From contig NZ_JOJL01000024.1 of the NCBI RefSeq assembly GCF_000721705.1, positions 62,001-126,000 on the forward strand: 64,000 nucleotides of DNA, read 5' to 3'. This DNA is from Actinoplanes subtropicus (GTDB lineage Bacteria > Actinomycetota > Actinomycetes > Mycobacteriales > Micromonosporaceae). The translations under genes and the position numbers were made by a program. Under the pieces are notes generated by a model. That model saw nothing but the letters and a program-made list of their open reading frames with translations, was not told the origin of the DNA and did not search any database. The first letter of the stretch is position 1, and each line of letters starts with the position of its first letter. Positions 14,933 through 28,791 of this stretch are shown here, one piece after another.

Positions 14933-15397
14933 TCAGGATCCCTCGAGGCTCAGGTCGATCAGTTTGTGCACCGCGTCGATCGCTCCGGGGACCGCCGCCT
15001 CGACCCGCGGGGTCAGGCCGATCTCCTCGAACGTGGTGTCGATCCGGCAGCCGACCAGGTACGTGGGCGGCAGCGGCTCGCCGATCCGCTCGAGCGTGCC
15101 GAGGATGGCGCCCGGGCTCATCTGGTGCGCGTCGAAGGGCGTGGGCTCGATGTCGCCCGGGCCGATCTCGAGCACCACCAACTCGCCCGGAGCGTTCTCG
15201 GTCGGCAGGGCGTCGACCAGGATCAGCCGGTCGGAGCCGTACATGTCGTAGGCGAGGTGCACGCCGCGGATCCCATAGTCGATGATGCGTACCCCGTCGG
15301 GCGGCGGCCCCTCGGCGAGCAGCCGCTTGATCACCTCGGGACCGAAGCCGTCGTCCCCGAGGAATATGTTGCCGATGCCGGCGACCAGGATTTTCAC
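14933..15397 (-). CDS. Hydrogenase large-subunit maturation endopeptidase (HupD/HyaD family)
   Basis: 154 residues with the family N-terminus ILVAGIGNIFLGDDGFG, whose acidic residue binds nickel, a second acidic site (ILVDALPTE) and a conserved His (FDAHQMSPG). It removes the C-terminal peptide of HhyL after nickel insertion; the expected target is the 22-residue tail after DPCLPCGVH. The start is GTG 15397, which overlaps the stop of the 40-aa peptide gene (ATGTGA), so the two are translationally coupled. Confidence 0.95.
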   Translation of the reverse strand: MKILVAGIGNIFLGDDGFGPEVIKRLLAEGPPPDGVRIIDYGIRGVHLAYDMYGSDRLILVDALPTENAPGELVVLEIGPGDIEPTPFDAHQMSPGAILGTLERIGEPLPPTYLVGCRIDTTFEEIGLTPRVEAAVPGAIDAVHKLIDLSLEGS

Positions 15398-15516
15398 ATC
15401 GATCGGATTCGCAGGTACCGCTGGATGTCGGGGAGCGACTCGACCACGAGCGTCGCGGCGTAGGCGGCGGCCGCCGCGGCCGCGATCGTGGTCACGGCGC
15501 CGATGAATCTGAGCAT
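15394..15516 (-). CDS. 40-aa single-span membrane peptide (DUF6893-like), hydrogenase-associated
   Basis: This small gene encodes a peptide starting MLRFIGAVTTI. A hydrophobic, alanine-rich helix of about 20 residues follows, then VVESLPDIQRYLRIRSM. A strong SD (AGGAGGT) lies six bases before ATG 15516, directly after the stop of the 414-aa gene, and its own stop overlaps the endopeptidase start. The RYLRIRSM ending recalls small proteins I know as DUF6893 beside actinobacterial hydrogenases; that match is from memory. One membrane span with a basic C-terminal tail suggests an anchor or assembly factor. Function unknown. Confidence 0.8.
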   Translation of the reverse strand: MLRFIGAVTTIAAAAAAAYAATLVVESLPDIQRYLRIRSM

Positions 15517-16761
15517 TCAGACCTCCTTGTCGATGGGCTCGAGTTCGTCGGGGGCGAAGTAGAAGTACCGGCCGTACCAGTCGTGCAGGTCGGCGGCCGG
15601 GTCGTCGACCAGCACCAGGGCCACGTGTGTCCCGCCGTCCACGTCGGACATGACGGCGGTCACCCGGGCCACCTGGCCGGCGAAGAACAGGTCCTGCGCG
15701 TCGGCCCGGCGGTTCGGGTGCACCCGCACCAGGCTGCCCTGGCCGACCCGGACCCCGTTGATCAGCACCGAGTCGGGGCCGGGGTCGTCGGTGGCCGGGT
15801 CCCACCAGGGCGAGTCGTCGAGCCGGGTGCCGTGCAGCCGCTGCAGCTCGCCGGGGGTGAGCGTGTCGCACCGGTCGACGATCGCGCCGGCCCGCGGGTC
15901 GGTGGCGCGGGCCTCGGCCTTTTCCTGGTCGGTCATTGTCATGACCCGCAGGGTGAGGATCTCGTCGATCTCGGTGGCGTCGAACAGGGCGCCCGGGCTC
16001 TGCGCGGCGACCGCCGGATTGTCGTACAGGATGATCGGCGCGCCGAGCAGCACCGTCTCCGACCCGGCGAGCACCGGCCAGCAGCGTTCCTGGTGGCAGC
16101 GGGCGGCGGCAGCGGCCGCGGCGGGCGGCGGGTCCTGCATGGAGACGAAGGTCGCGTCGTGCGCCTCGAGCAGCAGGTGCGCGCCCAGCAGGGAATGCCG
16201 GATCGCCTGGTCCTTGCTGGTCACCTCGTCCGGATGCTCGTTGGTCACCTCGATGCTGAGCCGGCGGAAGTCGTCGGCTTCCACCCGCACCCGTACCCGT
16301 GCGGTCAGCGGCCAGCGGCGACGCACGATCAGACCGTCGTCGCCCAGCGGCTCCTCGTCGACGCCCCCGGGGATGAAAACCGGAAAGTCGGATCTGTCGG
16401 ATGCAAGCGACAGGCCGAACGTCAGCTCGTGCTCGACCGCCTCGTCCCAGCTCAGGACCGTCTCGTCGCGGTGGCGCAGGGAGGTGACCGCGCGGCAGTC
16501 CGCGTCCAGGACCTGGCGCGCCTGCAACTGGAGGAACCGCAGATGGATGGTGACGCTCCCCGGACGTACGGCCGAAGGAAGCAGGCACCGCATCGCCATG
16601 CGCGGGTCCTCGGCGAAGGCCGGCGAGGCCGCCGCCGGCGGGCCGAGCACGCCGAACTGCCAGCGCGACCGGTTCTTGGCCGCGCTCGCCCGATAGGGAT
16701 AGAGCAGATAGCCCTCGTAGAGCACCGCATCGGCGACCGCCCGGGCCGCCTCGACCGTCAT
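15517..16761 (-). CDS. 414-aa hydrogenase-locus protein of unknown function
   Basis: A soluble protein starting MTVEAARAVADAVLYEGYLLYPYRASAAKNRSRWQFGVLGPPA. The opening segment looks conserved-family in character. A cysteine pair appears in ARCHQERCWP near the middle, and the C-terminus is acidic. I see no P-loop, SAM or radical motif. ATG 16761 overlaps the stop of the DUF6084 gene; its own stop abuts the 40-aa peptide gene. Its place inside a tightly coupled hydrogenase operon argues for a role in assembly or function of HhySL rather than general metabolism. Confidence 0.85.
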   Translation of the reverse strand: MTVEAARAVADAVLYEGYLLYPYRASAAKNRSRWQFGVLGPPAAASPAFAEDPRMAMRCLLPSAVRPGSVTIHLRFLQLQARQVLDADCRAVTSLRHRDETVLSWDEAVEHELTFGLSLASDRSDFPVFIPGGVDEEPLGDDGLIVRRRWPLTARVRVRVEADDFRRLSIEVTNEHPDEVTSKDQAIRHSLLGAHLLLEAHDATFVSMQDPPPAAAAAAARCHQERCWPVLAGSETVLLGAPIILYDNPAVAAQSPGALFDATEIDEILTLRVMTMTDQEKAEARATDPRAGAIVDRCDTLTPGELQRLHGTRLDDSPWWDPATDDPGPDSVLINGVRVGQGSLVRVHPNRRADAQDLFFAGQVARVTAVMSDVDGGTHVALVLVDDPAADLHDWYGRYFYFAPDELEPIDKEV

Positions 16762-17384
16762 CGCCCCGCCAGCAGGCGGCGCATCGTCTCGTCCCAGCCG
16801 ATCAGATCGTGCCGGGCGCGGTAGGCCGCCAGCTCCTTCAGGACGTCGCCGCTCACCCGGACGTAGCCGCTGTTCGGGAAAAACGCGTCGATCATCTCGC
16901 GCCAGACCCGCACCGGCAGGTGCCAGCGCGCCTCGCACGCCCACGGCACCTGCTCGACCTCGAAGCCGGTCGCGCCCTTCGTGAAGACCGTGCCGGAGAA
17001 CAGCAGGTTGAGCGGCACGTCACCGGCGTCGAGCGCGTGCAGGTAGCGGGCGCCGATCACCTCGAGGTCGTACGTGCAGGGCAGCGCCAGCTCGGCCTCG
17101 GTCTCCCCGGTGAAGCCCTGCACGGTCGCGTTGGCCTGCATCCACTGGAACGCCTTGAGCGTCTCGCCCCAGCGCTCCGGCTCGCCGAACAACCCGCGCA
17201 GCGCGTCCTGCTCGGCCGGCTCGTACCGGCGGCGCTGCGGCTCTATCCGCACCTGGCAGCGCAGCGCGATCGCGTGCACCCGCCGGCCGGTGCTCTCCTC
17301 GATCCGCAGACGCGCGGTGAGCTGCGGCGACGCCGCGTACGGCTCGGCCGTCACGTCCAGCACGGAGAAGGTGTACGCACTCAT
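16758..17384 (-). CDS. DUF6084 family protein, hydrogenase-associated
   Basis: 208 residues: MSAYTFSVLDVTAEPYAASPQL, then a beta-rich region (RIEESTGRRVHAIALRCQVRIEP). It has no catalytic motif or signal peptide that I can see. I place it in DUF6084 from memory of hydrogenase loci. It is coupled by 4-bp overlaps to the DUF5947 gene upstream and the 414-aa gene downstream. Function unknown. Confidence 0.8.
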   Translation of the reverse strand: MSAYTFSVLDVTAEPYAASPQLTARLRIEESTGRRVHAIALRCQVRIEPQRRRYEPAEQDALRGLFGEPERWGETLKAFQWMQANATVQGFTGETEAELALPCTYDLEVIGARYLHALDAGDVPLNLLFSGTVFTKGATGFEVEQVPWACEARWHLPVRVWREMIDAFFPNSGYVRVSGDVLKELAAYRARHDLIGWDETMRRLLAGR

Positions 17385-17947
17385 CTCGCCCTCGCCCGGA
17401 CCCGATCGAAGAGTTCCTCGACGGCGGCGTGCGCCTGCTGCCCGCCGTCGAAACCGCGCCAGAGGGTGCGCAGCCGCCCGACCAGCTCGTAGCAGACATC
17501 GATCGGCACCAGATAGCCGTCCTGGCCGCGCCGCAGCAGCAGCGCCTCGACATCCGGCCGCAGCTCCGCGGCGATCGGCAGATCCAACTCGGACTCGGTG
17601 GCCCCCGCCGGTCCGGGATAGAGGGCGACCATCCGGCCGAGCGCCGAGTTGTGGAACAGGAACGCCAGGCCGACGGGAATCTGGAGCTCGTCCCATGTCC
17701 TCTCGTCGAGGAAATTCCCGATACGTGCATATCGGTCGGGAATGGCCCTATAACGCAGATGTGCCTCGTCGTTCGTGAACAAGAGATAGCAGGGCCTGCA
17801 GGCGCACAACAGTTGCCGGGACTGCACGTCGACCACGTGCCCGTGGCCGGGCGCGATCTCTTCCGCGCACATCTCGCAGCGCTCGGGCCGTGGCCCGGTC
17901 GGCCGGTTGCGGACGACCCGCCGCAGAGTGGCCAGCGAGTCGCTCAT
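17381..17947 (-). CDS. DUF5947 family Cys-rich protein, hydrogenase-associated
   Basis: 188 residues. Near the N-terminus are CEMC (preceded by RPER) and CACRPC, four or five cysteines that could bind zinc or an Fe-S cluster. The rest is mixed alpha/beta (LFTNDEAHLRYRAIPDRYARI). I recognise it as DUF5947-like, a family known to me only from hydrogenase neighbourhoods. A metal-binding protein encoded between the large subunit and the maturation genes could act in cluster delivery or as an electron-transfer partner; this is inference. Confidence 0.8.
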   Translation of the reverse strand: MSDSLATLRRVVRNRPTGPRPERCEMCAEEIAPGHGHVVDVQSRQLLCACRPCYLLFTNDEAHLRYRAIPDRYARIGNFLDERTWDELQIPVGLAFLFHNSALGRMVALYPGPAGATESELDLPIAAELRPDVEALLLRRGQDGYLVPIDVCYELVGRLRTLWRGFDGGQQAHAAVEELFDRVRARAR

Positions 17948-18396
17948 GACGCGGGCCGGGTGAACAAAGCGGACACCGGGATGAGAGGCGTCGGCGCCTC
18001 CACGGAGACACCGGTGATCTCCGGGGCGGCCGCCTCGATCAACTGCTCGAGGCCGTGCGGTCGGCGACCCCGCAGCCGGCACAGGCCGTCCTCGGTGATC
18101 TCGATCAGCTCCACGCCGGTGCCCTTGATCGCGAGGGCGACCCGGGTGGCCGTGTCGTGCGGGTGCAGGCCGTGCACCAGCAGCAGGCCGGCGACCAGGT
18201 CGTCGCCGGCCAGCGCCTCGAGCGCCGCGTCGGTGAGCGCACCCCGCTCGTACAGCAGGTCGAGCATCCGCTCCAGGCCGGCGCCGTACAGGTCGGCCAC
18301 GGTGCGGACCAGCTCCTCGCCGGTGTCGCCCGCGGCTGCCAGCAGCGTGTCGATGCGCGCGGCGGATTCCCGCCAGTCGGTGCCGGCCACGCTCAC
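17944..18396 (-). CDS. NifU C-terminal-like protein lacking the CxxC site
   Basis: 150 residues from GTG 18396, chosen because it overlaps the hhyL stop as GTGA, the pattern used throughout this operon. The C-terminal half (GTGVELIEITEDGLCRLRG, then LIEAAAPEITGVSVEA) follows the NifU C-terminal-domain pattern, but the CxxC that carries the transient Fe-S cluster is absent. The N-terminal half is helical. It may be a structural relative that assists cluster insertion into HhyS rather than a scaffold. Family assignment is moderate. Confidence 0.72.
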   Translation of the reverse strand: MSVAGTDWRESAARIDTLLAAAGDTGEELVRTVADLYGAGLERMLDLLYERGALTDAALEALAGDDLVAGLLLVHGLHPHDTATRVALAIKGTGVELIEITEDGLCRLRGRRPHGLEQLIEAAAPEITGVSVEAPTPLIPVSALFTRPAS

Positions 18397-20144
18397 TCGG
18401 CCCCGGCGGACTGGGTGGGGGAGTGCAGCAACTCCAGCTTCTTGCCGCCGCCGAGATACATGTGCACGCCGCACGGCAGGCAGGGATCGAAGCTGCGCAC
18501 CGTACGCATGATGTCGATGCCCTTGAAGTGCTCCCGGTCGTTCTCCTCGAAGATCGGCTGGCCCTGCACCGCGTCCTCATACGGGCCGGGCGTGCCGTAG
18601 CTGTCCCGCGGGTTCGCGTTCCACGGCGTCGGCGGGTACGGGTGGTAGTTCGCGATCTTGCCGTCCCGGATGACCATGTGGTGCGACAGCACGCCCCGGA
18701 CCGCCTCGGTGAAGCCGCACCCGATGCCCTCGTCCGGCACCTCGAACGACTCCCAGGTCTTGGTGCGCCCGGCCCGGATCTCGGCCAGCGCCTTCTCCGC
18801 GAAATGCAGAGCACAACCGGCCGCGTACGCCTGGAAGTAGGTCCTTGCCCGGTTCCGCTCGATCGTGTTGCTCCACCGCGGGATCTTCCACTCGAACTCG
18901 ACCGCGGGCTTTAGCGCCGTCTTCGGCAGGTTGATCTTGACACTGCTGCCGGTGGATTTGACGTAGCCGATGTCGACCAGGCCGGCCAGCGCGGTCGACC
19001 AGAGCCGGGCCAGCGGGCCGCCGCCGGTGTCCAGCGCCAGGTAGTTCTGCCCGTCGTACCAGCGCGGCGACATCACCCAGCTGTACTTGCCGTCGAGGTC
19101 GCGCTTCTGCGGGCGCGGGTTGGTGTGCTGGTTCCAGGGGTGCCGGCGGTCGACCGGGTTGCCCAGCGGGTCGCGGGTCACGAACATCTCCTGGCCGTCC
19201 CAGTCCTCGTAGTAGGACGAGCCGAGCAGGATCCGGATGCCCAGGTTGATCTCGACGAGGTCGGTGGTGATCAGGTTGCCGTCCACCACGATGCCCGGGG
19301 TCACGTACATCTTGCGGCCCCAGTCGGTCATGTCCTCGTACTTGAAGGTGCAGGCGTCCGGGTCCTGGAAGGAGCCCCAGCAGCCGAGCAGGACCCGCCG
19401 GTTGCCGACCTGCTCGTAGCCGGGCAGCGCCTCGTAGAAGAAGTCGAAGAGGTCGTCGTGCATCGGGACGACCTTCTTCATGAACTCGACGTACCGCATC
19501 AGCCGGGTGAGGTAGTCGGTCATCAGCTGGATCGTGGCGACCGTGCCGACGCCGCCCGGGTAGAGCGTCGACGGGTGGACGTGCCGGCCCTCCATCAGGC
19601 AGAACATCTCCCGCGTCATCCGGCTGACCTGCAGCGCCTCGCGGTAGAACTCGCCGGTGAACGGGTTCAGCGAGCGCATGATGTCGCCGATCGTGCGGTA
19701 GCCGTGCATCCCGGCGTGCGGCGCCTCGGTGCGGTTGGCCCGCTCGAGCACGCCCGGGTTCGTCTCGCCGACCATCTTCTCGCAGTAGTCGACCCCGACC
19801 AGGTTCTCCTGGAAGATGTTGTGGTCGAACATGTACTCGGCCGCCTCGCCGAGATTCACGATCCACTCACCCAGGTGCGGCGGCTTCACCCCGTACGCCA
19901 TGTTCTGCGCGTAGCAGGAGCAGGTGGCGTGGTTGTCGCCGCAGATGCCGCAGATCCGGCTGGTGATGAAGTGGGCGTCCCGCGGGTCCTTGCCCTTCAT
20001 GAAGATGGAGTACCCGCGGAAGATCGAACTGGTGCTCTTGCACTCGGCGACGACCTTGTTCGCGAAGTCGATTTTCGTGTAGATGCCGAGGCTGCCGACG
20101 ATCCGGGTGATGGGATCCCATGACATTTCCACTAAATCGGTCAT
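18393..20144 (-). CDS. hhyL: Group 1h [NiFe] hydrogenase large subunit
   Basis: 583 residues from ATG 20144 (ATGA overlap with hhyS). The N-terminal metal motif is RICGICGDNHATCS, with C65 and C68, and the C-terminal motif is DPCLPCGVH, with C555, C558 and H561. The NHATC form of the first motif is characteristic of the actinobacterial (group 1h, formerly group 5) enzymes that oxidise hydrogen at atmospheric level in air. A 22-residue C-terminal tail after His561 remains for the endopeptidase to cut. No membrane segment. Transcribed with hhyS and the accessory genes. Group assignment is by motif recall rather than a tree. Confidence 0.96.
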   Translation of the reverse strand: MTDLVEMSWDPITRIVGSLGIYTKIDFANKVVAECKSTSSIFRGYSIFMKGKDPRDAHFITSRICGICGDNHATCSCYAQNMAYGVKPPHLGEWIVNLGEAAEYMFDHNIFQENLVGVDYCEKMVGETNPGVLERANRTEAPHAGMHGYRTIGDIMRSLNPFTGEFYREALQVSRMTREMFCLMEGRHVHPSTLYPGGVGTVATIQLMTDYLTRLMRYVEFMKKVVPMHDDLFDFFYEALPGYEQVGNRRVLLGCWGSFQDPDACTFKYEDMTDWGRKMYVTPGIVVDGNLITTDLVEINLGIRILLGSSYYEDWDGQEMFVTRDPLGNPVDRRHPWNQHTNPRPQKRDLDGKYSWVMSPRWYDGQNYLALDTGGGPLARLWSTALAGLVDIGYVKSTGSSVKINLPKTALKPAVEFEWKIPRWSNTIERNRARTYFQAYAAGCALHFAEKALAEIRAGRTKTWESFEVPDEGIGCGFTEAVRGVLSHHMVIRDGKIANYHPYPPTPWNANPRDSYGTPGPYEDAVQGQPIFEENDREHFKGIDIMRTVRSFDPCLPCGVHMYLGGGKKLELLHSPTQSAGAE

Positions 20145-21151
20145 GCCCGGACCCTTCTGCGCCGCCACTTGGGTTCTTGATCAAGGGTGTGCGTGGTGAT
20201 CTTTCTTAACCTGGAGATCGTCGTGCCGTACCAGCCGACGGCGGTGGTGGACAGCCGGCCGCCGGGCGGCTCGTCCATGAACGGCATGAACTTGTCGGGG
20301 AAGCCGGGCATCGTGCAGCCGATGCAGATGCCGCCCACGTTCGGGCAGCCGCCGACGCCGTTGAGCCAGCCGCGCTTGGGCACGTTGCACTTCACGACCG
20401 GGCCCCAGCAGCCGAGCTTCACGATGCACTGCGGCTCGCCGTACGCGGTGGCGAAGTTCGCCTGCTCGTAGTAGCCGGCCCGGTCGCAGCCCTCGTGCAC
20501 GGTGCTGCCGAACAGCCAGGCCGGGCGCAGCGCGTCGTCCAGCGGGATCGCCGGCGCCTGGCCGGTCGCCTGGTAGAGCAGGTAGGTCAGCGTCTCGGCG
20601 AGGTTGTCCGGCTGGATCGGGCAGCCCGGCACGCACACGATCGGGATGCCCGCCTTCGACTTCCACTGCCAGCCCAGGTAGTCGGGGACGCCCATGGCAC
20701 CGGTCGGATTCCCGGCCATCGCGTGGATGCCGCCGTACGTCGCGCAGGTCCCCACCGCCACCACCGCGGTCGCCTTGGGCGCCAGCCGATCCAGCCACTC
20801 GCTCGTGGTCATCGGCTGCCCGGTCGCCGGGTCGTTGCCGAAGCCGCACCAATACCCCTCGGCGTGCAGCGACTCGTCCGGGATCGACCCCTCCACCACC
20901 AGCACGAACGGCTCCAGCTCACCGCGGTCGGCCTTGCGGAACCACTCCAGGAAGTCGTCGGCGCCGCCGGTCGGCCCGCACTCGAAGTCGATCAGCGGCC
21001 AGTGCACGGCAATCCGCGGCAGGCCGGGCAGGGCGCCGAGCGCGATCTCCTCGACGCTGGGCTGGGTGGCCGCCGTCAACGCGACCGAATCGCCGTCGCA
21101 GCTGAGGCCCGCATTGATCCACAGGACATGGATGAGGGGATCGTCCGGCAT
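20141..21151 (-). CDS. hhyS: Group 1h [NiFe] hydrogenase small subunit
   Basis: 336 residues. The proximal cluster site reads CDGD (C18, D21), the three-Cys-one-Asp arrangement known for the actinobacterial-type hydrogenase of Cupriavidus. Further cluster cysteines occur in VGTCATYGG, CVPGCP, GCDRAG, GCWGPVVKCNVPKRG and GGCPNVGGICIGC. There is no Tat signal and no C-terminal membrane anchor; the C-terminus is basic (KWRRRRVRA). So the enzyme is predicted cytoplasmic or peripherally membrane-bound. SD-like AAAGGTGG precedes ATG 21151. First gene of the leftward operon. Confidence 0.96.
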   Translation of the reverse strand: MPDDPLIHVLWINAGLSCDGDSVALTAATQPSVEEIALGALPGLPRIAVHWPLIDFECGPTGGADDFLEWFRKADRGELEPFVLVVEGSIPDESLHAEGYWCGFGNDPATGQPMTTSEWLDRLAPKATAVVAVGTCATYGGIHAMAGNPTGAMGVPDYLGWQWKSKAGIPIVCVPGCPIQPDNLAETLTYLLYQATGQAPAIPLDDALRPAWLFGSTVHEGCDRAGYYEQANFATAYGEPQCIVKLGCWGPVVKCNVPKRGWLNGVGGCPNVGGICIGCTMPGFPDKFMPFMDEPPGGRLSTTAVGWYGTTISRLRKITTHTLDQEPKWRRRRVRA

Positions 21152-21291
21152 GACGGACCCACCTTTCCGGGGTCGTCCGTGACCCCTGCGGCGGAGGGGT
21201 CGGCGCTCGGCCCTTCGGGTGAGGCAGATAACACAGTAGTCCTGCGCTGTGTGACAATGTCAATCCATTCAGTAGATCCGGGGCCTCTCCC
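21152..21291 (+). promoter_or_regulatory. Divergent control region between hhyS and hypA
   Basis: 140 bp separate the two divergent starts. Two inverted repeats are visible: ACACAG (21231-21236) with CTGTGT (21247-21252), spacer 10; and TGACAaTGTCA at 21252-21262. On the minus strand a TTGACA -35-like hexamer overlaps the second repeat and faces hhyS. These are likely operator and promoter elements for a regulator not identified in the window. Confidence 0.5.
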
Positions 21292-21621
21292 ATGCACGAG
21301 TTGGCGATCGCGGAAGACATCGTGGACGCGGTGTGCGCACGCGCCGACGGACGCGTTGTGCGACGCGTGACGGTCCGAATCGGAAAGTTGACCGCGGTCG
21401 TCCCGGCGGCGATGAGATTCTGCTTCGATCTCGCGGTCGAGGGCACCGTGGCCGAGGGCGCCCGGCTCGACATCGAGGAACGGGCCGGCGCGGCGCACTG
21501 CAACGAGTGCGGCGCCGAGGTCGAGCTCGCCGACCCGATTCTGCTCTGCCCCTGCGGCAGTGCGGACCTGGCCGTCACGGCCGGTCGCGAGCTGCAGATC
21601 GTCTCGATGGAGGTGGGCTGA
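21292..21621 (+). CDS. hypA: Hydrogenase nickel-insertion protein HypA
   Basis: 109 residues. The N-terminal MHE that binds nickel is intact, and the zinc site reads CNEC, then CPCG about 16 residues later. HypA delivers nickel to the large subunit with HypB. It is divergent from hhyS, and its stop overlaps the hypB start, so nickel insertion is controlled from its own promoter rather than with the Fe(CN)2CO genes. Confidence 0.96.
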   Translation: MHELAIAEDIVDAVCARADGRVVRRVTVRIGKLTAVVPAAMRFCFDLAVEGTVAEGARLDIEERAGAAHCNECGAEVELADPILLCPCGSADLAVTAGRELQIVSMEVG

Positions 21622-22289
21622 TGTGTGCGACCTGCGGCTGTGGGCACAGCCACGAGGTGATCACCCTGGAGCAGCGGGTGCTCGCCAAGAACGACGAGCT
21701 CGCCGCGACGAACCGGTCATTTCTCGAAATGAACGAGATAACGGCGATCAATGTGATGAGCTCGCCGGGCTCGGGCAAGACCACGCTGCTGGAACGCAGC
21801 ATTCGCGATCTGCCCGGAAAGAGGATCGCGGTGATCGAGGGCGATCAGGAAACGACGCTGGATGCCGAAAGGATCAGGAGCACCGGCTGCCCGGTGGTGC
21901 AGATCAACACCGGGGCGGGCTGCCACTTGGACGCGGCCATGTTGCGCGACGCGATCGACCGGCTCCAGCCGGAGAGGCGGGCGCTGCTGTTCGTCGAGAA
22001 CGTGGGTAACCTGGTCTGTCCGGCGTTGTTCGACTTGGGAGAGCGAGGGAAGGTCGTGGTCATCTCGGTGACCGAGGGGACCGACAAACCGTTGAAGTAT
22101 CCATACATGTTCGCTACTGCCGATCTTGTGGTGGTGAACAAGGTGGACCTGATGCCCTACGTCGACTTCGACCTCGGCGCCTGCCGTGCGCAGGTCGCCT
22201 CGGTGAATCCGAAGGCGGAGGTCCTGGCTGTTTCCGCGACCCGGGGGGACAACCTCGACTCCTGGTACGACTGGCTCGCCGCCGCCTGA
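21621..22289 (+). CDS. hypB: Hydrogenase nickel GTPase HypB
   Basis: 222 residues. The N-terminus CATCGCGHSHE gives the Cys2-Cys5-Cys7 high-affinity nickel site. The P-loop is SPGSGKTT at 48-55, followed by EGDQET, and a G4-like NKVDL specifies guanine. There is no long His-rich stretch, so it lacks the nickel-storage function of some homologues. It ends 3 bp from the oppositely oriented 22293-22871 gene. Confidence 0.96.
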   Translation: MCATCGCGHSHEVITLEQRVLAKNDELAATNRSFLEMNEITAINVMSSPGSGKTTLLERSIRDLPGKRIAVIEGDQETTLDAERIRSTGCPVVQINTGAGCHLDAAMLRDAIDRLQPERRALLFVENVGNLVCPALFDLGERGKVVVISVTEGTDKPLKYPYMFATADLVVVNKVDLMPYVDFDLGACRAQVASVNPKAEVLAVSATRGDNLDSWYDWLAAA

Positions 22290-22292
22290 CAC

Positions 22293-22871
22293 CTAGTTCA
22301 GGCTCGGCTCGCGGCGGCGCTGCCAGACCTGGCACAGATCGGCGCCCTCGAGGGTGCGCAGCACCCGCAGCACCCGATCGGCCCGCAGGTAGCTGGCGAT
22401 CTCCGCGGTCACGTCGAGCAGCGCCGCCACCGGGGTGACCACCACCGGCAGGCTGCCGGCGTCGAGCAGCCGCTCCACGATCGCCGCGTCCCGCAGCATC
22501 TCGCCGTGCCGGTGCCGCACCCGCATGGCGACGACCTCCTGCCGGGGAAGGCGGGCGCGCAGGCCGGCGGCCATCGAGTGCTGCACCGAGCGGACGTTCG
22601 AACCGAAGACCACCAACAGCTCCCGGTCGGCGGCGAGCGCGGCGAGCCGGGACATCACCATCTCCGGGTGCCACGCCGCGTCGCGCTCGCGGACCGCCGC
22701 CACGGTCACGCTCGACCCGGCCTGCCGGGTGCCGGCCTGCTGGGCCGCCCACCAGCCGGCCTCGGGCTCGCGAACCACCAGGGGGACGTGCGAGCGGGTC
22801 GCCGTGCCGCGGGTGCATTCCACCGGTATCGCCGTCAGCGCGCGTCGCGCCGTGAATCGTTGCCAGAGCAA
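22293..22871 (-). CDS. Small protein with weak resemblance to amino-acid (carbamate) kinases
   Basis: I place the start at TTG 22871 because a good SD (AGAGGTGGG) lies six bases upstream; a start at 22961 would add 30 residues. The 192-residue product is not firmly recognised. Residues SRLAALAADRELLVVFGSN and DAAIVERLLDAGSLPVVV, then a TAEIASYLRADRVLRVL stretch, follow the order and spacing of parts of carbamate kinases (an aptitude for AEHELVVTHGNG and DKDLAxxLA motifs), but the middle third and key glycine loop are missing. Placed beside hypB, a carbamoyl-phosphate-linked role is an attractive but unproven idea. Confidence 0.55.
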   Translation of the reverse strand: MLWQRFTARRALTAIPVECTRGTATRSHVPLVVREPEAGWWAAQQAGTRQAGSSVTVAAVRERDAAWHPEMVMSRLAALAADRELLVVFGSNVRSVQHSMAAGLRARLPRQEVVAMRVRHRHGEMLRDAAIVERLLDAGSLPVVVTPVAALLDVTAEIASYLRADRVLRVLRTLEGADLCQVWQRRREPSLN

Positions 22872-23045
22872 GGCAGTCCCACCTCTTGAGTCGTCGGGGC
22901 CGGCGCGCCGGGTCGTCACGCCACGTAGCCGGGGGTGTCCGGCCCGGTCACCAGGCTGCATGACGGCGTGTCACCGGCACCAGACCCACTGCTGTCTACC
23001 CAGATGTGGTTCGGATCCGCTACCGGGTGATCATGCGAAGAGCCT

Positions 23046-23077
23046 GGTCACTGTGGTGACCGGACACTTGTGTCCGG
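23046..23077. promoter_or_regulatory. Two adjoining palindromes upstream of the 22871 gene
   Basis: GGTCACtgtgGTGACC (23046-23061) runs into CCGGACACttGTGTCCGG (23060-23077). Within them GGTGACCGGACAC (23055-23067) is found again, inverted, at 24202-24214 beyond the other end of hhyS2. The palindromes also sit 43 bp past the hhyS2 stop, so they could act as its terminator hairpin (no T tract), but the shared 13-mer favours a regulator site. The rest of 22872-23120 shows no gene. Confidence 0.45.
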
Positions 23078-23120
23078 GAGGTTGGCGCCGACTTCGTGCT
23101 TCTGGGGGATTCCCTGGTGC

Positions 23121-24113
23121 CTAGTGTCCATGCGTCGCGACCCGCAGCGTGAAACCACGAAGCGTACGAATCAATGGGGCATATCCGGCAGACGGCACGG
23201 CCTCGGCGGGGTTCGATTCCATGAACGGCATGAACTTGTCCGGGAAGCCGGGCATCGTGCACGCGATGCAGATGCCGCCCACGTTCGGGCAACCGCCCAC
23301 CCCGTTGATCCAGCCGCGCTTGGCCACGTTGCACCGCACCACCTGGCCCCAGCAGCCGACCTTCACCAGGCAGTTGGTCGCGCCGTACTCGACGGCGAAG
23401 TCGCTCTGATCGTAGAAGGATGCCCGGTCGCAGCCGGAGTGCACGGTCGACTCGAACAGCCAGCGCGGGCGCAGCGACTCGTCCAGCGCCATCTCCGGCG
23501 ACTGGCCGGAGACCTGGAAGAGCAGCTGCAACAGGGTCTCGGCGAGATTGTCGGGATGCGTCGGGCAGCCCGGCACGCAGACGATCGGCAGGCCGGCCTT
23601 CGACGTCCAGTCCCAGCCCAGGTAGTCGGGGACGCCCATGGCGCCGGTCGGGTTCCCGGCCATCGCGTGCACCCCGCCATACGCCGCGCAGGTGCCGACC
23701 GCCATCACCGCCGTGGCCTTCGGCGCCAGCCGGTTCAGCCACTCGCTCGCGGTGATCGGCTGCCCGGTCAGCGGGTCGTTGCCGAACCCGCTCCAGTAGC
23801 CGTCGACCTTGTTGTTCTCGTCGGCCACCGAGCCCTCGACGATCAGGATGAACGGGTCGAGCTCGCCCCGGTCGGCGCGGTGCCACCACTCGATGAAGCT
23901 GCTCGCGCCGCCGTCCGGGCCGCTGTCGAAGTCGAAATACGGCCAGTGCAGGGCGATCGGCGGCAGCCCGGGCAGGGCGCTGGCCACGATCTCCTCGATG
24001 CTGGGCTGGGTCGCCGCGGTCAGGGCCACCGACTCGCCGTCGCAGCTGAGGCCGCCATTCATCCAGAGGATGTGCAGCACCCGCTCATCCACGTTCGCGG
24101 GCGGGGTGTCCAC
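23121..24113 (-). CDS. Orphan second group 1h hydrogenase small subunit
   Basis: 330 residues from GTG 24113, closely related to HhyS over its whole length: SVALTAATQPS, AVGTCAAYGGVHAMAGNP, GCWGQVVRCNVAKRGW and GGCPNVGGICIACTMPGF are all kept. The proximal site reads CDGE (C24, E27) where HhyS has CDGD, so the fourth ligand would be Glu. The C-terminus diverges after FMPFME and lacks the basic tail. No second large subunit is present, so it must pair with HhyL, act alone, or be regulatory. No frameshift or stop suggests decay. Its promoter region faces the HTH gene at 24255. Confidence 0.93.
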   Translation of the reverse strand: MDTPPANVDERVLHILWMNGGLSCDGESVALTAATQPSIEEIVASALPGLPPIALHWPYFDFDSGPDGGASSFIEWWHRADRGELDPFILIVEGSVADENNKVDGYWSGFGNDPLTGQPITASEWLNRLAPKATAVMAVGTCAAYGGVHAMAGNPTGAMGVPDYLGWDWTSKAGLPIVCVPGCPTHPDNLAETLLQLLFQVSGQSPEMALDESLRPRWLFESTVHSGCDRASFYDQSDFAVEYGATNCLVKVGCWGQVVRCNVAKRGWINGVGGCPNVGGICIACTMPGFPDKFMPFMESNPAEAVPSAGYAPLIRTLRGFTLRVATHGH

Positions 24114-24188
24114 CGGCCGTCACCATCCGATCAGCGCCGAGATGCGGGCGATGTTATGCAACTTGCGCGTGAGACGAAAGGCCTTCAT

Positions 24189-24214
24189 CACTCGATCGAG
24201 TGTGTCCGGTCACC
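24189..24214. promoter_or_regulatory. Palindrome plus repeated 13-mer between hhyS2 and the HTH gene
   Basis: CACTCGATCGAGTG (24189-24202) is a perfect 14-bp palindrome. It is followed at once by GTGTCCGGTCACC (24202-24214), whose reverse complement occurs at 23055-23067. Lying between divergent starts at 24113 and 24255, it is a likely operator. Confidence 0.45.
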
Positions 24215-24254
24215 GTAAGCTCGCCATGATGGCATTGTCTCCCGCGGAGGCCGG

Positions 24255-24791
24255 ATGGTGGAGCACATCGAGATCCTGCCCATCGAGGTGGTGGCGCAGG
24301 CCTTTCCCGCGCGTCCGGCCGCACTGCCCGACGTGCGCGACTTCGTACGCCGGCAGCTGATCGACACCCGGGTGTCCGACGACGACATCCGCATCCTCTG
24401 CGAGCGCGTCGCCGAGGTGCTGCTCGACGGCGCGGGCTCGGCCGGGAACATCCAGGTCTCCCTGCGGATCTTCCCGGACGCGGCCGAGGTCGACGTGCTC
24501 TTCGCGCCCGAGACGGCGCCGGTCCGGGTCCGCAGCACCGCGGCCGCGCCGCTGCCGATATCGGCGCCCCGGCAGCTCGCGGTGCCGATGTCGCCGGTGC
24601 CGGTCGAGCGCACCTCGTTCGCCACCTGGCTGGCCGGCCGGCTCCGCGAGGAGGGGCTGACCATGGAGGCGGCCGCCCGCAAGCTCGACGTCTCCACCAA
24701 GACGATCAGCCGGTGGGTGGCCGGCAGCACCGAACCGCGGATGCGTGACCTCTACCGCATCCGGGAGACCTTCGGCGAGCCGTTGCCCTGA
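24255..24791 (+). CDS. RsbW-like N-terminal domain fused to C-terminal HTH
   Basis: 178 residues. Residues 15-85 (FPARPAALPDVRDFVRRQLI, later VRILFPDAAEVDVLF-like strands) resemble the first half of a GHKL/RsbW ATPase, with an ICERVAEVL helix where the N-box Glu-Asn would be; the Asn is not evident and the ATP lid is missing. After a proline-rich linker comes an XRE-like HTH (about 122-170: GLTMEAAARKLDVSTKTISRW). It has a good SD (GGAGG) before ATG 24255. Likely a DNA-binding regulator with a sensory N-terminus; divergent from hhyS2, which is its natural first target candidate. Confidence 0.7.
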   Translation: MVEHIEILPIEVVAQAFPARPAALPDVRDFVRRQLIDTRVSDDDIRILCERVAEVLLDGAGSAGNIQVSLRIFPDAAEVDVLFAPETAPVRVRSTAAAPLPISAPRQLAVPMSPVPVERTSFATWLAGRLREEGLTMEAAARKLDVSTKTISRWVAGSTEPRMRDLYRIRETFGEPLP

Positions 24792-24836
24792 TCGAGCTGC
24801 CCTGATCGAGCTGCCCTGATGGAGTTGCCCTGATGG
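24787..24836 (+). repeat. 14-bp tandem repeat, 3.5 copies
   Basis: The unit CCTGATCGAGCTGC occurs at 24787 and 24801, a variant (CCTGATGGAGTTGC) at 24815 and a partial copy at 24829. The first copy holds the stop of the HTH gene and the last holds the start codon of the decarboxylase, so copy number sets the distance between the two genes. Confidence 0.85.
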
Positions 24837-25960
24837 ACACGCCATACCTGCTCATCGACATCGCGGTCGCGGCCGACCAGTACCGCCGGATCGCCGCGGC
24901 CTTTCCCGGCGTGCCGGTGTATTACGCGGTCAAGGCCAATCCCGAGCCACTGCTGGTGCGCGAGCTGGTCGAGGCCGGCTGCCACTTCGACGTCGCCAGC
25001 CGCAACGAGGTCGACCTCTGCCTGTCCGCGGGGGCCGATCCGTCCGTGTTGTCGTTCGGAAACACCATAAAAAAGGCCGAGGACATTGCGTACGCGTACG
25101 GCAAGGGTGTTCGGATTTTCGCCTTCGACAGCCTCGGCGAGGTGGAGAAGCTGGCCGAGCACGCGCCCGGGTCGACCGTGATCTGCCGGGTGCTCGCCTC
25201 GAGCCAGGGCGCGCGCTGGCCGCTGAGCCGCAAGTTCGGCTGCGCCCCCGAGATGGCCGCCGACCTGATCCGCTGGGCCGCCCGCAACGGCCTCGACCCG
25301 GCCGGGATCTGTTTCCACGTCGGATCGCAGCAGCTCGACCCGGGGCGCTGGGAGCCGAGCATCGCCGAGGCGGCCGCCCTGTATGCCCGGCTGCGCGCGG
25401 AGGGGATCGCGTTGCGGCTGCTCAACTGCGGCGGCGGCTTCCCGGTGGACTATCTCGCGCCGGCGCTGCCGATCCCGGCGTACGCGTCGGCGATCACCAC
25501 CGCCGTCGACCGGCACTTCCCGGCTGCCCGGCCGAGCCTGATGATCGAGCCGGGCCGCTACATCGCGGCGCCCTGCGGGGTGCTGCACACCGAGGTGGTG
25601 CTGGTCTCCCGCAAGTCGTACGCCGACGAGCCGCGCTGGGTCTACCTAGACGTCGGGCGCTTCGGCGGCCTGGCCGAGACCGAGGACGAGGCGATCCGCT
25701 ACCGGCTGACGACCCCGCACGACGGCGCCCGCACCGGCCCGGTCGTGCTGGCCGGCCCGACCTGCGACAGCGTCGACATCCTCTACCAGAACACGACCTA
25801 CGACCTGCCGATGGCACTGCGCCCCGGCGACCTGGTGCAGATCCACGGCACCGGCGCCTACACCGCCACGTATGCCTCGGTCGGCTTCAACGGCTTCCCG
25901 CCGCTGCGCACGGTCGTGCTGCCGCCTACAGATCGCTCCGAACCCGGCGAATCTCCCTGA
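24833..25960 (+). CDS. PLP-dependent ornithine/diaminopimelate-type decarboxylase (fold III)
   Basis: 375 residues of the alanine-racemase-like fold. K34 in VYYAVKANP forms the PLP aldimine; HVGSQ, a glycine-rich phosphate loop (LNCGGGFPVDY), EPGR and CDSVD carry the other active-site residues. The CDSVD cysteine comes from the partner subunit in the dimer. The size and the short N-terminus favour ornithine or lysine decarboxylase over LysA. It follows the HTH gene with a tandem repeat between, and its 3' end overlaps the convergent regulator gene by 35 bp. Confidence 0.9.
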   Translation: MDTPYLLIDIAVAADQYRRIAAAFPGVPVYYAVKANPEPLLVRELVEAGCHFDVASRNEVDLCLSAGADPSVLSFGNTIKKAEDIAYAYGKGVRIFAFDSLGEVEKLAEHAPGSTVICRVLASSQGARWPLSRKFGCAPEMAADLIRWAARNGLDPAGICFHVGSQQLDPGRWEPSIAEAAALYARLRAEGIALRLLNCGGGFPVDYLAPALPIPAYASAITTAVDRHFPAARPSLMIEPGRYIAAPCGVLHTEVVLVSRKSYADEPRWVYLDVGRFGGLAETEDEAIRYRLTTPHDGARTGPVVLAGPTCDSVDILYQNTTYDLPMALRPGDLVQIHGTGAYTATYASVGFNGFPPLRTVVLPPTDRSEPGESP

Positions 25961-26774
25961 TCGCCGCGTCCTTCGTCAGGCCCGAGTCGATCAGCGTGTC
26001 GGCGGCGTCGTGATAGCCGGCGATCACGTCCTTGTCGCGGATCAGCACGTTCCGCACCGGGGACTCGACGAAGACCACGTCCGGATCCTCCGCGCCGGCG
26101 AATTCCAGCAGCTCGAAGCCGCCGCCCGGGCCGGGCATCAGGCCGTGCCGCAACGGCACCACGACCAGCCGCACCTGCTGGTCGGCGACCACCTGCAGGA
26201 GCCGGTCGAGCTGCCCGCGCATCACCGCGGCGCCACCGATCCGGCGTTCCAGCACGGCGCCGTCGAGCACCGCGGTCAGCCGCACCCGCTTGTCCAGCTC
26301 GGTCTGGCGCCGCATGACCAGTTCCAGCGCGCTCTGCACCCGCGGGTCGTCGGGCTTCTTCCCGGCGGCGGCGGTGAGCGCCATCCGCGCGTACGCCTCG
26401 GTCTGCAGCAGGTCGGGAATGTGCAGCGCCTGGTACGCGGTGATCCGCGCGGCCGTGCTCTCGTACGCGACGAAATCCCGGACCTCGCTCTCCAGCTGGA
26501 ACCCGCTCCACCACTGCCGGCGCCGGGCGGCGATCGCGAGATCGGTGAGCGCCGCGACCTCCCCCGGATCGTGGATCCCGTAGATCTGCAGCAGCGCCTG
26601 GGCATCCAGCGGCTGAACGGTGACCGCGCCGGTCTCGATCCGGTTCAACTTGGACAGCGACCAGTGCGTCCGCGAGGTGACCGCGTCGGGCGTCAGCCCG
26701 CTCAGCCGGCGCAACTCGACGAGCCGCGACCGCAGACGCTCCCGGGCGACCGCCTGGCCGACCTCATCCGGCAT
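25926..26774 (-). CDS. XRE-family regulator with DUF5753 (tandem copy 1)
   Basis: 282 residues: an N-terminal HTH (about 12-70, HWSLSKLNRIETGAV) and a C-terminal DUF5753 ligand/partner domain with the family marks YESTAARITAYQ, IPDLLQTEAYAR and a PVRNVLI-type end. Such proteins pair with small DUF397 proteins and control secondary metabolism or differentiation in actinomycetes. No DUF397 gene adjoins this copy; the nearest are at 28995 and 29204. Confidence 0.9.
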   Translation of the reverse strand: MPDEVGQAVARERLRSRLVELRRLSGLTPDAVTSRTHWSLSKLNRIETGAVTVQPLDAQALLQIYGIHDPGEVAALTDLAIAARRRQWWSGFQLESEVRDFVAYESTAARITAYQALHIPDLLQTEAYARMALTAAAGKKPDDPRVQSALELVMRRQTELDKRVRLTAVLDGAVLERRIGGAAVMRGQLDRLLQVVADQQVRLVVVPLRHGLMPGPGGGFELLEFAGAEDPDVVFVESPVRNVLIRDKDVIAGYHDAADTLIDSGLTKDAAIREIRRVRSDL

Positions 26775-26859
26775 GGTGTCCGCCCCCGTCCGCCCACCCG
26801 ACGCTCCCGGTTCGAACCACGTTACCCCGCCGTTCCCACCACGGCGCCGGCCGGCGTGG

Positions 26860-27717
26860 TCAACTTCCGATCTCGCCTTGAATCCGCCGCACCAGCGCGA
26901 CGGCGTCGGCGCCGCGCAAGCCGGTCGCGAGCAAGGAGTCCAGGATGGGCCGGTAGACGTCGTGCACGTGGATGCCGCGCACGATCTGGTCGCGGATCGT
27001 CGACTCGAGCAGCACGGTGGTCAGACTCGGGTCGTTGCCGAACTCGAGCAGTTCGAAGATGCCGCCCAGGCCGGGATGTCCGCCCTCGCTGGTCGGCATG
27101 ACCACCAGGGTCACCTTTCCGTTCTCCGCGGCGGAGGCGAGGTGGCCCAACTGTTCGGTCATCAGCTCCGGACCGCCGATCACGCGGCGTAGGACGATCT
27201 CGTCCACGATCGCCAAGAACTGGACGTCCGGCCGAGCCGCGATCCGGCTCCGCCGTTCGGCGCGCACCCGGACTCGTGCCACCACGACCGGATCGTCCTC
27301 GGGCCGGCCCAGGATGACCGCGGTCGCCGCTCGCGCGTACCGCGGGGTCTGCAGCGGACCGGGGACGACCAGGGGCTCGTAGATGCTGATTCGGGTGGCC
27401 TCGGCCTCGTAGGCGACGTAGTCCTGGTACTCGTCGGTCAGCCCGTGCAGCGCCCACCACGGACGCGACCAGGCGACCTGAGCGAGCAGCAGGAGCCGTT
27501 CCGCCTCGGGCCCGCTCACCTCGTACACGCCCAGCAGCGCGTCCACCTCGAGCGGCGGGAGCGGGAGGAGGCCGGACTCCACCTCGTCGATGGTCGACGC
27601 CGACCAGTTCAGTCGCTGCCCCACCTCGGCGGGTGCGAGGCCGCGGGATTCGCGGAGCTCCCGCAAACGTGCGCGGAGCCGATCGCGGGCGGCCGCCGGT
27701 CCGATGATCTCTGGCAT
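26860..27717 (-). CDS. XRE-family regulator with DUF5753 (tandem copy 2)
   Basis: 285 residues with the same architecture as its neighbours: HTH at about 12-68 (LNWSASTIDEVESG) and DUF5753 beyond 90 (EYQDYVAYEAEATRISIYEP, VVPGPLQTPRYARA). Its HTH is the most diverged of the three. The genes lie head to tail with 85-200-bp gaps, large enough for separate promoters, so they need not be one operon. Confidence 0.9.
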   Translation of the reverse strand: MPEIIGPAAARDRLRARLRELRESRGLAPAEVGQRLNWSASTIDEVESGLLPLPPLEVDALLGVYEVSGPEAERLLLLAQVAWSRPWWALHGLTDEYQDYVAYEAEATRISIYEPLVVPGPLQTPRYARAATAVILGRPEDDPVVVARVRVRAERRSRIAARPDVQFLAIVDEIVLRRVIGGPELMTEQLGHLASAAENGKVTLVVMPTSEGGHPGLGGIFELLEFGNDPSLTTVLLESTIRDQIVRGIHVHDVYRPILDSLLATGLRGADAVALVRRIQGEIGS

Positions 27718-27918
27718 GACGAGCCTCTCTGCGAGCGAGGTCCGACTTCGGCGTCGTCCTGAGGCGGGCTATGGATATGGAAGGAGAGGGGCTCCTCTCG
27801 AGGGATCAACAGCGAGTGACAACAACGATACCGAGAACGTTTCGAGCGGGAAGAGAAGCTCGACTGTCCTGGCCGGAAATGGACCATGACCGGTTTCGCG
27901 ATGCGTGAAATCGGGTCG

Positions 27919-28791
27919 TTACTGTCGGAGGGCCTGCACGGCGTTGGCCACCGCACGGTCGAGGCTGTCGCCGGCCGCGTCGGTGGCGAGCAGTTCGTCC
28001 ATGATCTCACGAAACGGCTCTGTTTCCTCCGCGTCGGCGAGGAGGAAATCGGCAGCGGGAGTCTCGATGAAGACCACGTCCAGGTCGTCGTCCTCGGAGA
28101 AGGTGAGCAGTTCGAAGGAGCCGCCGAGTCCGGGATGGACGCCGAGGCGGAAGGGCGTCACGACGATCTCGATGTTCGCCTGGGCGCTCATCGCCACCAG
28201 GTGGTCGAGCTGGGCGGCCATCACCTGATCGCCACCGACCGGCCGCAGCAGGACACCCTCGTCGATCACCTGGCTGACGTGTGGCGGGTTGTCGCCGGCC
28301 AGCCTCGCCCGCAACGTCTCCTGCCGCTTCAGCCGGACGTCGACGATCTTGCGCACCCGCGGGTCGCGGGCGGGCTTGCGGAGGATCGACGAGGTGAGGG
28401 CCATGGCGTACTCCGCCGTCTGCAGCGCGGCCGGGACGAAGGTGGCCTGGTAGCCGTAGAGGTGCGAGGCGTCGTTCTCGAAGGCGATGAAGTTCAGGAA
28501 GTCCTCACCGAGGTGCTCGTGCTCGTCCCGCCACCACATGCGCCGGCGGGAGGCCACCGAGAGCTCGACCAGCCGGCCGACCTCGGCCGGGTTGGTGAGG
28601 CCGTAGTGGCGGGCGAGCGCCTCCACCTCGATCGGCTGGATCGTGACCTTGTTGTTCTCGATCCGGTTCAGCTTGGAGAGCGACCAGTGCATCGCCCGGG
28701 CGACCTCGGCCGCCGGCCGGTCCTCGCGCATCTCCCGCAGCTGGTTGGAGAGCCGCATGCGAGCCAGCGCCGGTCCCACGCCTTCGGTCAT
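27919..28791 (-). CDS. XRE-family regulator with DUF5753 (tandem copy 3)
   Basis: 290 residues. The HTH (AMHWSLSKLNRIENNKVTIQP) is nearly identical in its recognition part to copy 1, while the DUF5753 half differs (FENDASHLYGYQATFVPAALQT). It is transcribed away from two DUF397 genes through a shared control region holding inverted repeats. That divergent arrangement makes it the probable partner of those DUF397 proteins. Confidence 0.92.
   Translation of the reverse strand: MTEGVGPALARMRLSNQLREMREDRPAAEVARAMHWSLSKLNRIENNKVTIQPIEVEALARHYGLTNPAEVGRLVELSVASRRRMWWRDEHEHLGEDFLNFIAFENDASHLYGYQATFVPAALQTAEYAMALTSSILRKPARDPRVRKIVDVRLKRQETLRARLAGDNPPHVSQVIDEGVLLRPVGGDQVMAAQLDHLVAMSAQANIEIVVTPFRLGVHPGLGGSFELLTFSEDDDLDVVFIETPAADFLLADAEETEPFREIMDELLATDAAGDSLDRAVANAVQALRQ

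What the first reader, a model, noticed from the sequence alone, without database searches (positions are those of the whole stretch)
23121..24113. Orphan hydrogenase small subunit with Glu replacing the proximal-cluster Asp
The window has two full-length group 1h small subunits but one large subunit. HhyS keeps CDGD (C18, D21), the known three-Cys-one-Asp proximal site; the orphan reads CDGE (C24, E27) yet retains the other cluster cysteines and the HhyL-contact segments. It has its own promoter region. An alternative small subunit exchanging on HhyL to change electron acceptor or oxygen tolerance, or a hydrogen-sensing subunit, are both testable. I know of no described orphan of this kind.
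Basis: partly seen in the sequence, partly recalled or inferred. Interest (0 to 1): 0.75.

Follow-up and report, generated by a model that had tools for sequence, protein, structure and literature searches.

The report
Second, exchangeable small subunit for hydrogenase
A soil actinomycete carries a second electron-relay subunit for its single high-affinity hydrogen enzyme, and some relatives have lost the usual one and keep only this version, so it is probably a working alternative part rather than a relic.

Summary
The gene at 23121-24113 (minus strand, GTG start, 330 aa) is an intact group 1h-type [NiFe]-hydrogenase small subunit, 70% identical to the HhyS of the same cluster. Its proximal-site motif is CDGE (C24, E27) where HhyS has CDGD (C18, D21). 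One full HhyL was found in the genome. It belongs to a clade, here called HhyS2, found in 17 of 67 Actinoplanes-group genomes, in Virgisporangium and in Pseudonocardiaceae. HhyS2 mostly stands without a large-subunit gene and opposite a conserved HTH regulator gene; in the genus it lacks the HhyS C-terminal tail. In 5 of the 17 genomes no HhyS was found and HhyS2 is the only small subunit for the only HhyL; one keeps a HhyS deletion scar. In Lentzea and three other genomes an HhyS2-type gene directly precedes HhyL. Best reading: a separately regulated alternative small subunit that docks on HhyL. Glu for Asp recurs in other unpaired second copies, but some unpaired copies keep Asp and a few paired ones have Glu, so its effect is unproven. 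Nothing found points to a sensor role. All evidence is from sequence; there are no protein or expression data.

The parts
23121..24113 (-). HhyS2: unpaired group 1h-type hydrogenase small subunit, CDGE proximal motif (C24, E27), no C-terminal tail
24190..24201 (.). perfect 12-bp palindrome ACTCGATCGAGT in the shared promoter region; the site ACYCGATCGRGTGA occurs with 0-2 mismatches in 14 of 17 genus intergenic regions
24255..24791 (+). divergent regulator: Xre-type HTH, with a predicted N-terminal part weakly like RsbW/SpoIIAB
22293..22961 (-). uncharacterised protein near HhyS2 in 17 of 17 genus genomes and both Virgisporangium genomes; weak amino-acid-kinase-like fold hits
20141..21151 (-). 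HhyS, ordinary small subunit (CDGD; C18, D21) with C-terminal tail
18393..20168 (-). HhyL, the only full group 1h large subunit found in the genome; motifs RICGICGDNH and DPCLPCGVH intact
17944..18393 (-). small protein after HhyL; no Pfam match itself, but several relatives match NifU; a paralogue lies beside HhyS2 in 12 of 17 genus genomes, not in this strain
17381..18019 (-). DUF5947 protein of the hydrogenase operon
16758..17387 (-). DUF6084 protein of the hydrogenase operon
14933..15460 (-). hydrogenase maturation protease
21292..21621 (+). HypA (name recalled from the sequence; no family search run)
   Evidence: conserved position
21618..22289 (+). HypB (name recalled from the sequence; no family search run)
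   Evidence: conserved position (one relative, G027, gave no HypB match there)

Best explanation
The gene encodes an alternative small subunit (HhyS2) of the single group 1h hydrogenase. It is transcribed from its own promoter opposite a dedicated regulator. It carries the Fe-S cluster ligands and docks on HhyL in place of HhyS, giving a second form of the enzyme with Glu instead of Asp at the fourth proximal-cluster position, Gln for Pro after the GCWG motif, and no C-terminal tail. Shown by sequence: an intact conserved clade, retained cluster cysteines, purifying selection, a conserved divergent regulator gene, and relatives in which it is the only small subunit found for HhyL. Inferred: physical docking on HhyL in this strain, alternation with HhyS, and changed redox tuning or partner choice.
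For: Five of 17 genus genomes with HhyS2 gave no HhyS match but one full HhyL, with intact motifs and purifying selection (median dN/dS 0.169 for HhyL, 0.300 for HhyS2); three of the five are assemblies of 1-2 contigs. One (G009) keeps a HhyS scar with the Fe-S core deleted. The losses need at least 3 changes on the HhyL tree, and these HhyL fall among ordinary Micromonosporaceae HhyL. HhyS2-clade genes directly precede HhyL in Lentzea, G448, G589 and G597. In the 12 genomes with both, median dN/dS is 0.215 for HhyS2 and 0.161 for HhyS. The small NifU-related gene after HhyL is present in 12 of 12 genomes with HhyS and in 0 of 5 without, so HhyS was lost together with an apparent partner. Divergent regulator in 17 of 17 genus genomes.
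Against: No protein or expression data. In strains with both subunits, docking of HhyS2 on HhyL is not shown. Median dN/dS of both HhyS2 and HhyL is higher in the HhyS2-only genomes (0.300 against 0.215, 0.169 against 0.118), which could mean weaker constraint. This strain lacks the NifU-related paralogue that accompanies HhyS2 in 12 of 17 genus genomes, and G022 and G032 (HhyS2-only) show neither copy near the cluster. The join of Actinoplanes and Pseudonocardiaceae HhyS2 has moderate support (93/81; weaker).
Confidence: 0.66

Rival explanations
1. HhyS2 is a functionally equivalent isoform of HhyS. Asp and Glu are nearly interchangeable at this position and the second copy differs only in when it is expressed.
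For: CDGD occurs in unpaired HhyS2 of Kutzneria-type genomes and G527, and CDGE in two paired Streptomyces small subunits. Aspartate at Fe-S ligand positions is well tolerated in another [NiFe]-hydrogenase (PMC4070099, passages seen).
Against: Only 7 fixed differences separate the two types in the genus and E27/D21 is one. Pseudonocardiales second copies carry both CDGE and the Pro-to-Gln change although they are sisters of their own CDGD copies. In the genus, the HhyS C-terminal tail is missing from all 17 HhyS2.
Confidence: 0.2
2. HhyS2 does not work with HhyL where HhyS is present; it serves alone as an Fe-S protein or as an assembly or decoy factor.
For: Mostly no large-subunit gene beside it; conserved regulator and a conserved unknown neighbour.
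Against: HhyS2-only genomes keep HhyL and much of the surrounding hydrogenase gene set; operons with HhyL exist in the same clade.
Confidence: 0.09
3. HhyS2 with HhyL forms a regulatory H2-sensing hydrogenase.
For: A regulator gene is adjacent in all HhyS2 loci read in full on that side.
Against: No kinase or PAS domain among the ten window proteins scanned against Pfam (neighbours in relatives were not scanned for this). The same regulator also stands before ordinary HhyS-HhyL pairs in G322 and eight Pseudonocardiaceae genomes. By sequence the closest solved structure by far is the C. necator actinobacterial-type enzyme.
Confidence: 0.04
4. HhyS2 is a decaying duplicate.
For: One Kutzneria-type HhyS2 (G584) and one unrelated Pseudonocardiales second copy (G359) are broken.
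Against: 17 of 17 genus copies are open and keep 11 invariant cysteines, with median dN/dS 0.250 over all 17 and 0.215 in the 12 genomes with both.
Confidence: 0.01

Closest known systems
Group 1h [NiFe]-hydrogenase small subunit HhyS / actinobacterial-type hydrogenase of Cupriavidus necator H16 (PDB 5AA5)
   Same: 451.6 bits to the 5AA5 small subunit over residues 12-322, next best structure 129.9 bits; same cysteine set as HhyS.
   Different: Glu for Asp at the fourth proximal position, Gln for Pro after GCWG, no C-terminal tail in the genus, mostly no adjacent large-subunit gene.
Huc (group 2a) of Mycobacterium smegmatis
   Same: High-affinity uptake hydrogenase in which the fourth cluster residue matters for cluster type (PMC10017518, passages and section 7 seen).
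   Different: A different group, with three [3Fe-4S] clusters and the HucM scaffold. Group 1h is said to have a specific Asp coordinating the proximal [4Fe4S] cluster (PMC7174314, passage seen).
HhyE of M. smegmatis Hhy
   Same: NifU-like/CxxC protein of group 1h operons, needed for H2 oxidation in M. smegmatis (PMC6883350, passages seen); NifU-related and DUF5947 genes accompany HhyS2 in many relatives.
   Different: That the two short proteins correspond to HhyE is my inference; no alignment to HhyE was made.

Membership tests
Group 1h [NiFe]-hydrogenase small subunit | Full-length sequence similarity to group 1h small subunits | tested here: met
   70% identity to HhyS of the window; 5AA5 small subunit the best PDB match, E 1.8e-134; PF01058 and PF14720 above their cut-offs
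Group 1h [NiFe]-hydrogenase small subunit | Cluster-binding cysteines retained | tested here: met
   11 cysteine columns invariant in 17 orphan-type and 12 HhyS sequences; which cysteine serves which cluster is recalled, not tested
Group 1h [NiFe]-hydrogenase small subunit | Typical, not defining: Asp at the fourth proximal-cluster position (CDGD) | tested here: not met
   CDGE in 17 of 17 genus copies; CDGE also in two Streptomyces small subunits next to HhyL, so Asp is not strictly required in the group
Group 1h [NiFe]-hydrogenase small subunit | Typical, not defining: encoded next to a group 1h large subunit | tested here: not met
   No HhyL directly beside it in 17 genus genomes; one full HhyL per genome. 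Clade members next to HhyL exist in four Pseudonocardiaceae genomes
Group 1h [NiFe]-hydrogenase small subunit | Forms an active complex with a group 1h large subunit | not testable with these tools
   Indirect only: HhyS2-only genomes keep HhyL
H2-sensing [NiFe]-hydrogenase | Sensor-type large subunit and kinase partner | tested here: not met
   No second full large subunit matching HhyL in the genome; no kinase among ten window proteins scanned. A sensor-type large subunit unlike HhyL was not searched for separately

The most novel reading that the evidence does not exclude
One catalytic [NiFe] subunit is shared by two separately regulated electron-relay subunits: HhyS, and HhyS2 with a Glu-ligated proximal cluster. 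The bacterium swaps relays to change redox potential or electron acceptor, and similar swaps arose more than once through unpaired second copies that tend towards Glu.
Probability: 0.42. Interest if true: 0.8.

Novelty: new variant of a known kind. Interest (0 to 1): 0.62.

Why it matters
High-affinity hydrogenases of this group are thought to drive much of the soil uptake of atmospheric H2 (abstracts of PMC7174314 and PMC8027828, seen in search listings). Two natural small subunits for one large subunit, differing at a cluster ligand, would let the role of that ligand in affinity and O2 behaviour be tested on an otherwise identical catalytic subunit. It also means that surveys based on HhyL or on S-L pairs can miss a second form of the enzyme, and that deleting hhyS alone may not abolish activity in these genera. 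Several such proteins are named 'hydrogenase expression protein HypE' in public records, which hides them.

Tried and rejected
A second large subunit: searched and not found in the own genome; in G017 and G039 the only extra matches are weak partial ones. Pseudogene: rejected for the genus. Glu as a strict marker of unpaired copies: rejected, since Kutzneria-type unpaired copies have Asp and two Streptomyces paired copies have Glu. An independent-pairs test of unpaired versus Glu gave 4 usable pairs, on average 3.2 in the expected and 0.1 in the other direction; this cannot reach significance. A Fisher test over Micromonosporaceae copies (19 unpaired Glu, 57 paired Asp, none otherwise, p 2.6e-18) ignores kinship, and the 19 are one clade, so I give it no weight. 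My label counted the Pseudonocardiales second copies as Pro because it required GCWG; they read GCGGQ, so the Pro/Gln change count printed there (1) is too low. The place of the Streptomyces CDGE pair is unstable: next to HhyS2 (85/90, long branch), elsewhere; Glu may thus be older than HhyS2 with returns to Asp. HhyL columns with disjoint residues between HhyS2-only and other genus genomes: one (493, A against V), not followed up. Palindrome: the count in the window is not above chance (2 matches with up to 2 mismatches, 2.4 expected); with up to 1 mismatch, 17 matches in 343,235 bases of genus loci against 0 in one simple shuffle, of which three lie away from the HhyS2 promoter (two strands of one place in L057, one in L065). 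Outside the genus the site was weak (2 mismatches in one Virgisporangium, 3-4 or none elsewhere). Structure models of 22293-22961 and 24255-24791 gave weak leads only. Rfam over 18000-26000: no match. Literature: ten searches in the open-licence PMC library, several with many more papers than the 20 listed, showed no description of a second unpaired group 1h small subunit in the listings or passages I saw; subscription papers, including the 5AA5 paper, were not seen. A multimer prediction tool was not at hand.

Full report
1. What is there. The gene 23121-24113 (minus strand) is an open GTG-started frame of 330 codons. It matches the small-subunit domains PF01058 and PF14720 and, among solved structures, best the small subunit of the Cupriavidus necator actinobacterial-type hydrogenase 5AA5 (451.6 bits; next best 129.9). 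The own genome has two such small subunits, 70% identical, and one HhyL. The orphan ends soon after PGFPDKFMPFM...LRGFTLRVA and lacks the 'TLD.EPKWRR' tail seen in HhyS.

2. It is conserved. In the genus, 17 of 67 genomes (own genome included) have a small-subunit match, and all 17 have the orphan type. CDGE is found in 17 of 17 orphan-type and CDGD in 12 of 12 HhyS sequences. Across these, 11 cysteines are invariant in both, and 7 positions are fixed and different, among them E27/D21 and Q257/P251. Nei-Gojobori medians in the 12 genomes with both are dN/dS 0.215 (orphan), 0.161 (HhyS) and 0.118 (HhyL): purifying selection, somewhat weaker than on HhyS.

3. Neighbourhood. In 17 of 17 genus genomes the orphan is divergent from the gene of 24255 and has the gene of 22293 nearby. 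The first encodes an HTH_3 protein (14 of 14 scanned relatives); the N-terminal part of its AlphaFold model resembles RsbW/SpoIIAB, with Foldseek E-values of only 0.01-0.06. The shared promoter region holds a palindrome, perfect as ACTCGATCGAGT in the window and as ACCCGATCGGGT in four relatives (L051, L052, L060, L061), so both halves changed together. With 0-2 mismatches the site ACYCGATCGRGTGA is found in 14 of 17 genus regions; of the other three, two have 3 mismatches and one has none found. The count in the window alone is not above chance; the shared position and the paired changes are the argument. In 12 of 17 genomes a paralogue of the NifU-related gene after HhyL stands beside the orphan, and in three a DUF5947 paralogue too; the window strain has neither.

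4. Natural experiment. Five genomes (G009, G022, G027, G032, G044) gave the orphan type and no HhyS, but one full HhyL each. G009, G027 and G032 are assemblies of one or two contigs; G022 and G044 are drafts. In G009 the gap before HhyL still holds the HhyS start joined in frame to the HhyS tail, with the Fe-S core gone. All five lack the NifU-related gene next to HhyL, which all 12 genomes with HhyS have. HhyL in the five keeps RICGICGDNH and DPCLPCGVH and a median dN/dS of 0.169 (0.118 in the others). On the HhyL tree, which is poorly resolved inside the genus, the five need at least three separate losses of HhyS, and they fall among the Micromonosporaceae HhyL (100/100 with Virgisporangium, 95/94 for the genus rows). 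If these enzymes work, the orphan type must be the partner of HhyL there.

5. Wider distribution. The family search (354 genomes, 66 with a match) adds two Virgisporangium genomes with both types. All 57 small subunits with HhyL beside them that I read in this family are CDGD (12 genus, 2 Virgisporangium, G322, 32, 10); all 19 unpaired ones are CDGE (17 genus, 2 Virgisporangium). Not counted: G068 (fragments at contig ends, one reading CDGD beside the regulator gene), G168 (fragments), G136 and G137 (distant). A scan of the genome collection (84,980 species by its description) for CDGE in its conserved context gave 31 stretches; 5 are unrelated (L081, L084, L085, L107, L110). Of the 26 real ones, 3 lie next to HhyL (two Streptomyces, one Lentzea) and for 23 no HhyL lies directly downstream in the DNA read; one of the 23 is broken (L089). 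Some of these contigs are short. No matching scan for CDGD was possible, so this is not a rate. The end of the protein varies here: some HhyS2 are short, others (G448, G583) have ends as long as HhyS but unlike it.

6. One large subunit. Genomes with an unpaired and a paired small subunit had one full HhyL-type large subunit in the 12 genus genomes, in 2 Virgisporangium and 4 Amycolatopsis genomes, and in G474, G478, G479, G515, G527, G581, G582, G583, G584 and G585 (G474 and G479 also have weak partial matches). The Acidobacterium (G355) and two Solirubrobacteraceae (G356, G364) have one close HhyL plus more distant large subunits or pieces. G363 and G366 are fragmentary. The Blastocatellia genome (G367) has one CDGE small subunit and its HhyL on another contig. 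G487 and G718 carry two ordinary pairs, G511 seems to, and G554, G557, G558 and G553 also show two small and two large subunit matches; other genomes with two or more matches were not resolved.

7. Tree. With the tail, the Asp/Glu column and the Gln/Pro column left out, the careful tree of 68 rows joins Actinoplanes, Virgisporangium and Pseudonocardiaceae HhyS2 (support 93/81) apart from HhyS; the program warned of long branches at the root and for G022 and the Blastocatellia row. Small subunits that stand between the same regulator and HhyL (G322, G466, G576, G580) are among the nearest relatives, with support of 85-90. This suggests, as inference, that the unpaired locus came from a complete operon that lost its large subunit. 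Unpaired CDGE copies of Pseudonocardiales MAGs are sisters of the paired CDGD copies of such MAGs (100/100); those of Acidobacteria/Blastocatellia and Solirubrobacteraceae are separate. Parsimony gives 7 changes between Asp and Glu and 5 between unpaired and paired. The Pseudonocardiales copies also carry the Gln found in HhyS2; in the 172-row alignment one HhyS2-side row has His there (P0034). The repeated change argues for function, but four independent contrasts cannot give significance, and the exceptions in section 5 stand against a simple rule.

8. How it probably works. Group 1h enzymes are said to have a specific aspartate coordinating the proximal [4Fe4S] cluster, linked with O2 tolerance (PMC7174314, passage). 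Glu at ligand positions was called scarce in [NiFe]-hydrogenase alignments and expected to need second-sphere changes (PMC4070099, passage). HhyS2 would bring such a residue, a Gln near the distal and medial ligands (ligand assignment recalled from other hydrogenases), and a shorter end to the same HhyL. The likely outcome is a different redox tuning or docking partner under conditions set by the divergent regulator. Docking and tuning are inferred; the replacement of HhyS by HhyS2 in some genomes is what the sequences show.

9. Verdict. It is a new variant of a known kind: a small subunit mostly encoded without its own large subunit and probably exchangeable on a shared one. Whether the two forms differ in affinity, O2 response or acceptor is open.

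Noticed in passing
L052:6930-7015: In-frame remnant of HhyS (start plus C-terminal tail, Fe-S core deleted) just upstream of HhyL in a two-contig Actinoplanes-group genome.
   Followed up: yes
L083 and L098: Unpaired Solirubrobacteraceae CDGE small subunits have Arg at the column of H225, the distal-cluster His by recall.
   Followed up: no
L097 and L102: Pseudonocardiales second copies share CDGE and the Pro-to-Gln change with HhyS2 although sister to paired CDGD copies.
   Followed up: partly
L208 and L209 (G068): Small-subunit fragments at two contig ends, one beside the regulator and one beside the 22293-type gene; the assembly cannot show whether the gene is whole or has HhyL.
   Followed up: partly
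window 17944-18393: The NifU-related protein beside HhyL has lost the CxxC seen in Streptomyces relatives; most HhyS2-side copies read in other genus genomes keep one Cys there.
   Followed up: no
window 25926-28791: Three related HTH/DUF5753-type regulators in tandem beyond the HhyS2 region (Pfam scanned for the first only).
   Followed up: no
window 24833-25960: Pyridoxal-dependent decarboxylase next to the regulator, kept at that place in L055, L061 and L066.
   Followed up: no
protein names and C. necator record: Several group 1h small subunits are named 'hydrogenase expression protein HypE' in public records, which looks like a misannotation.
   Followed up: no
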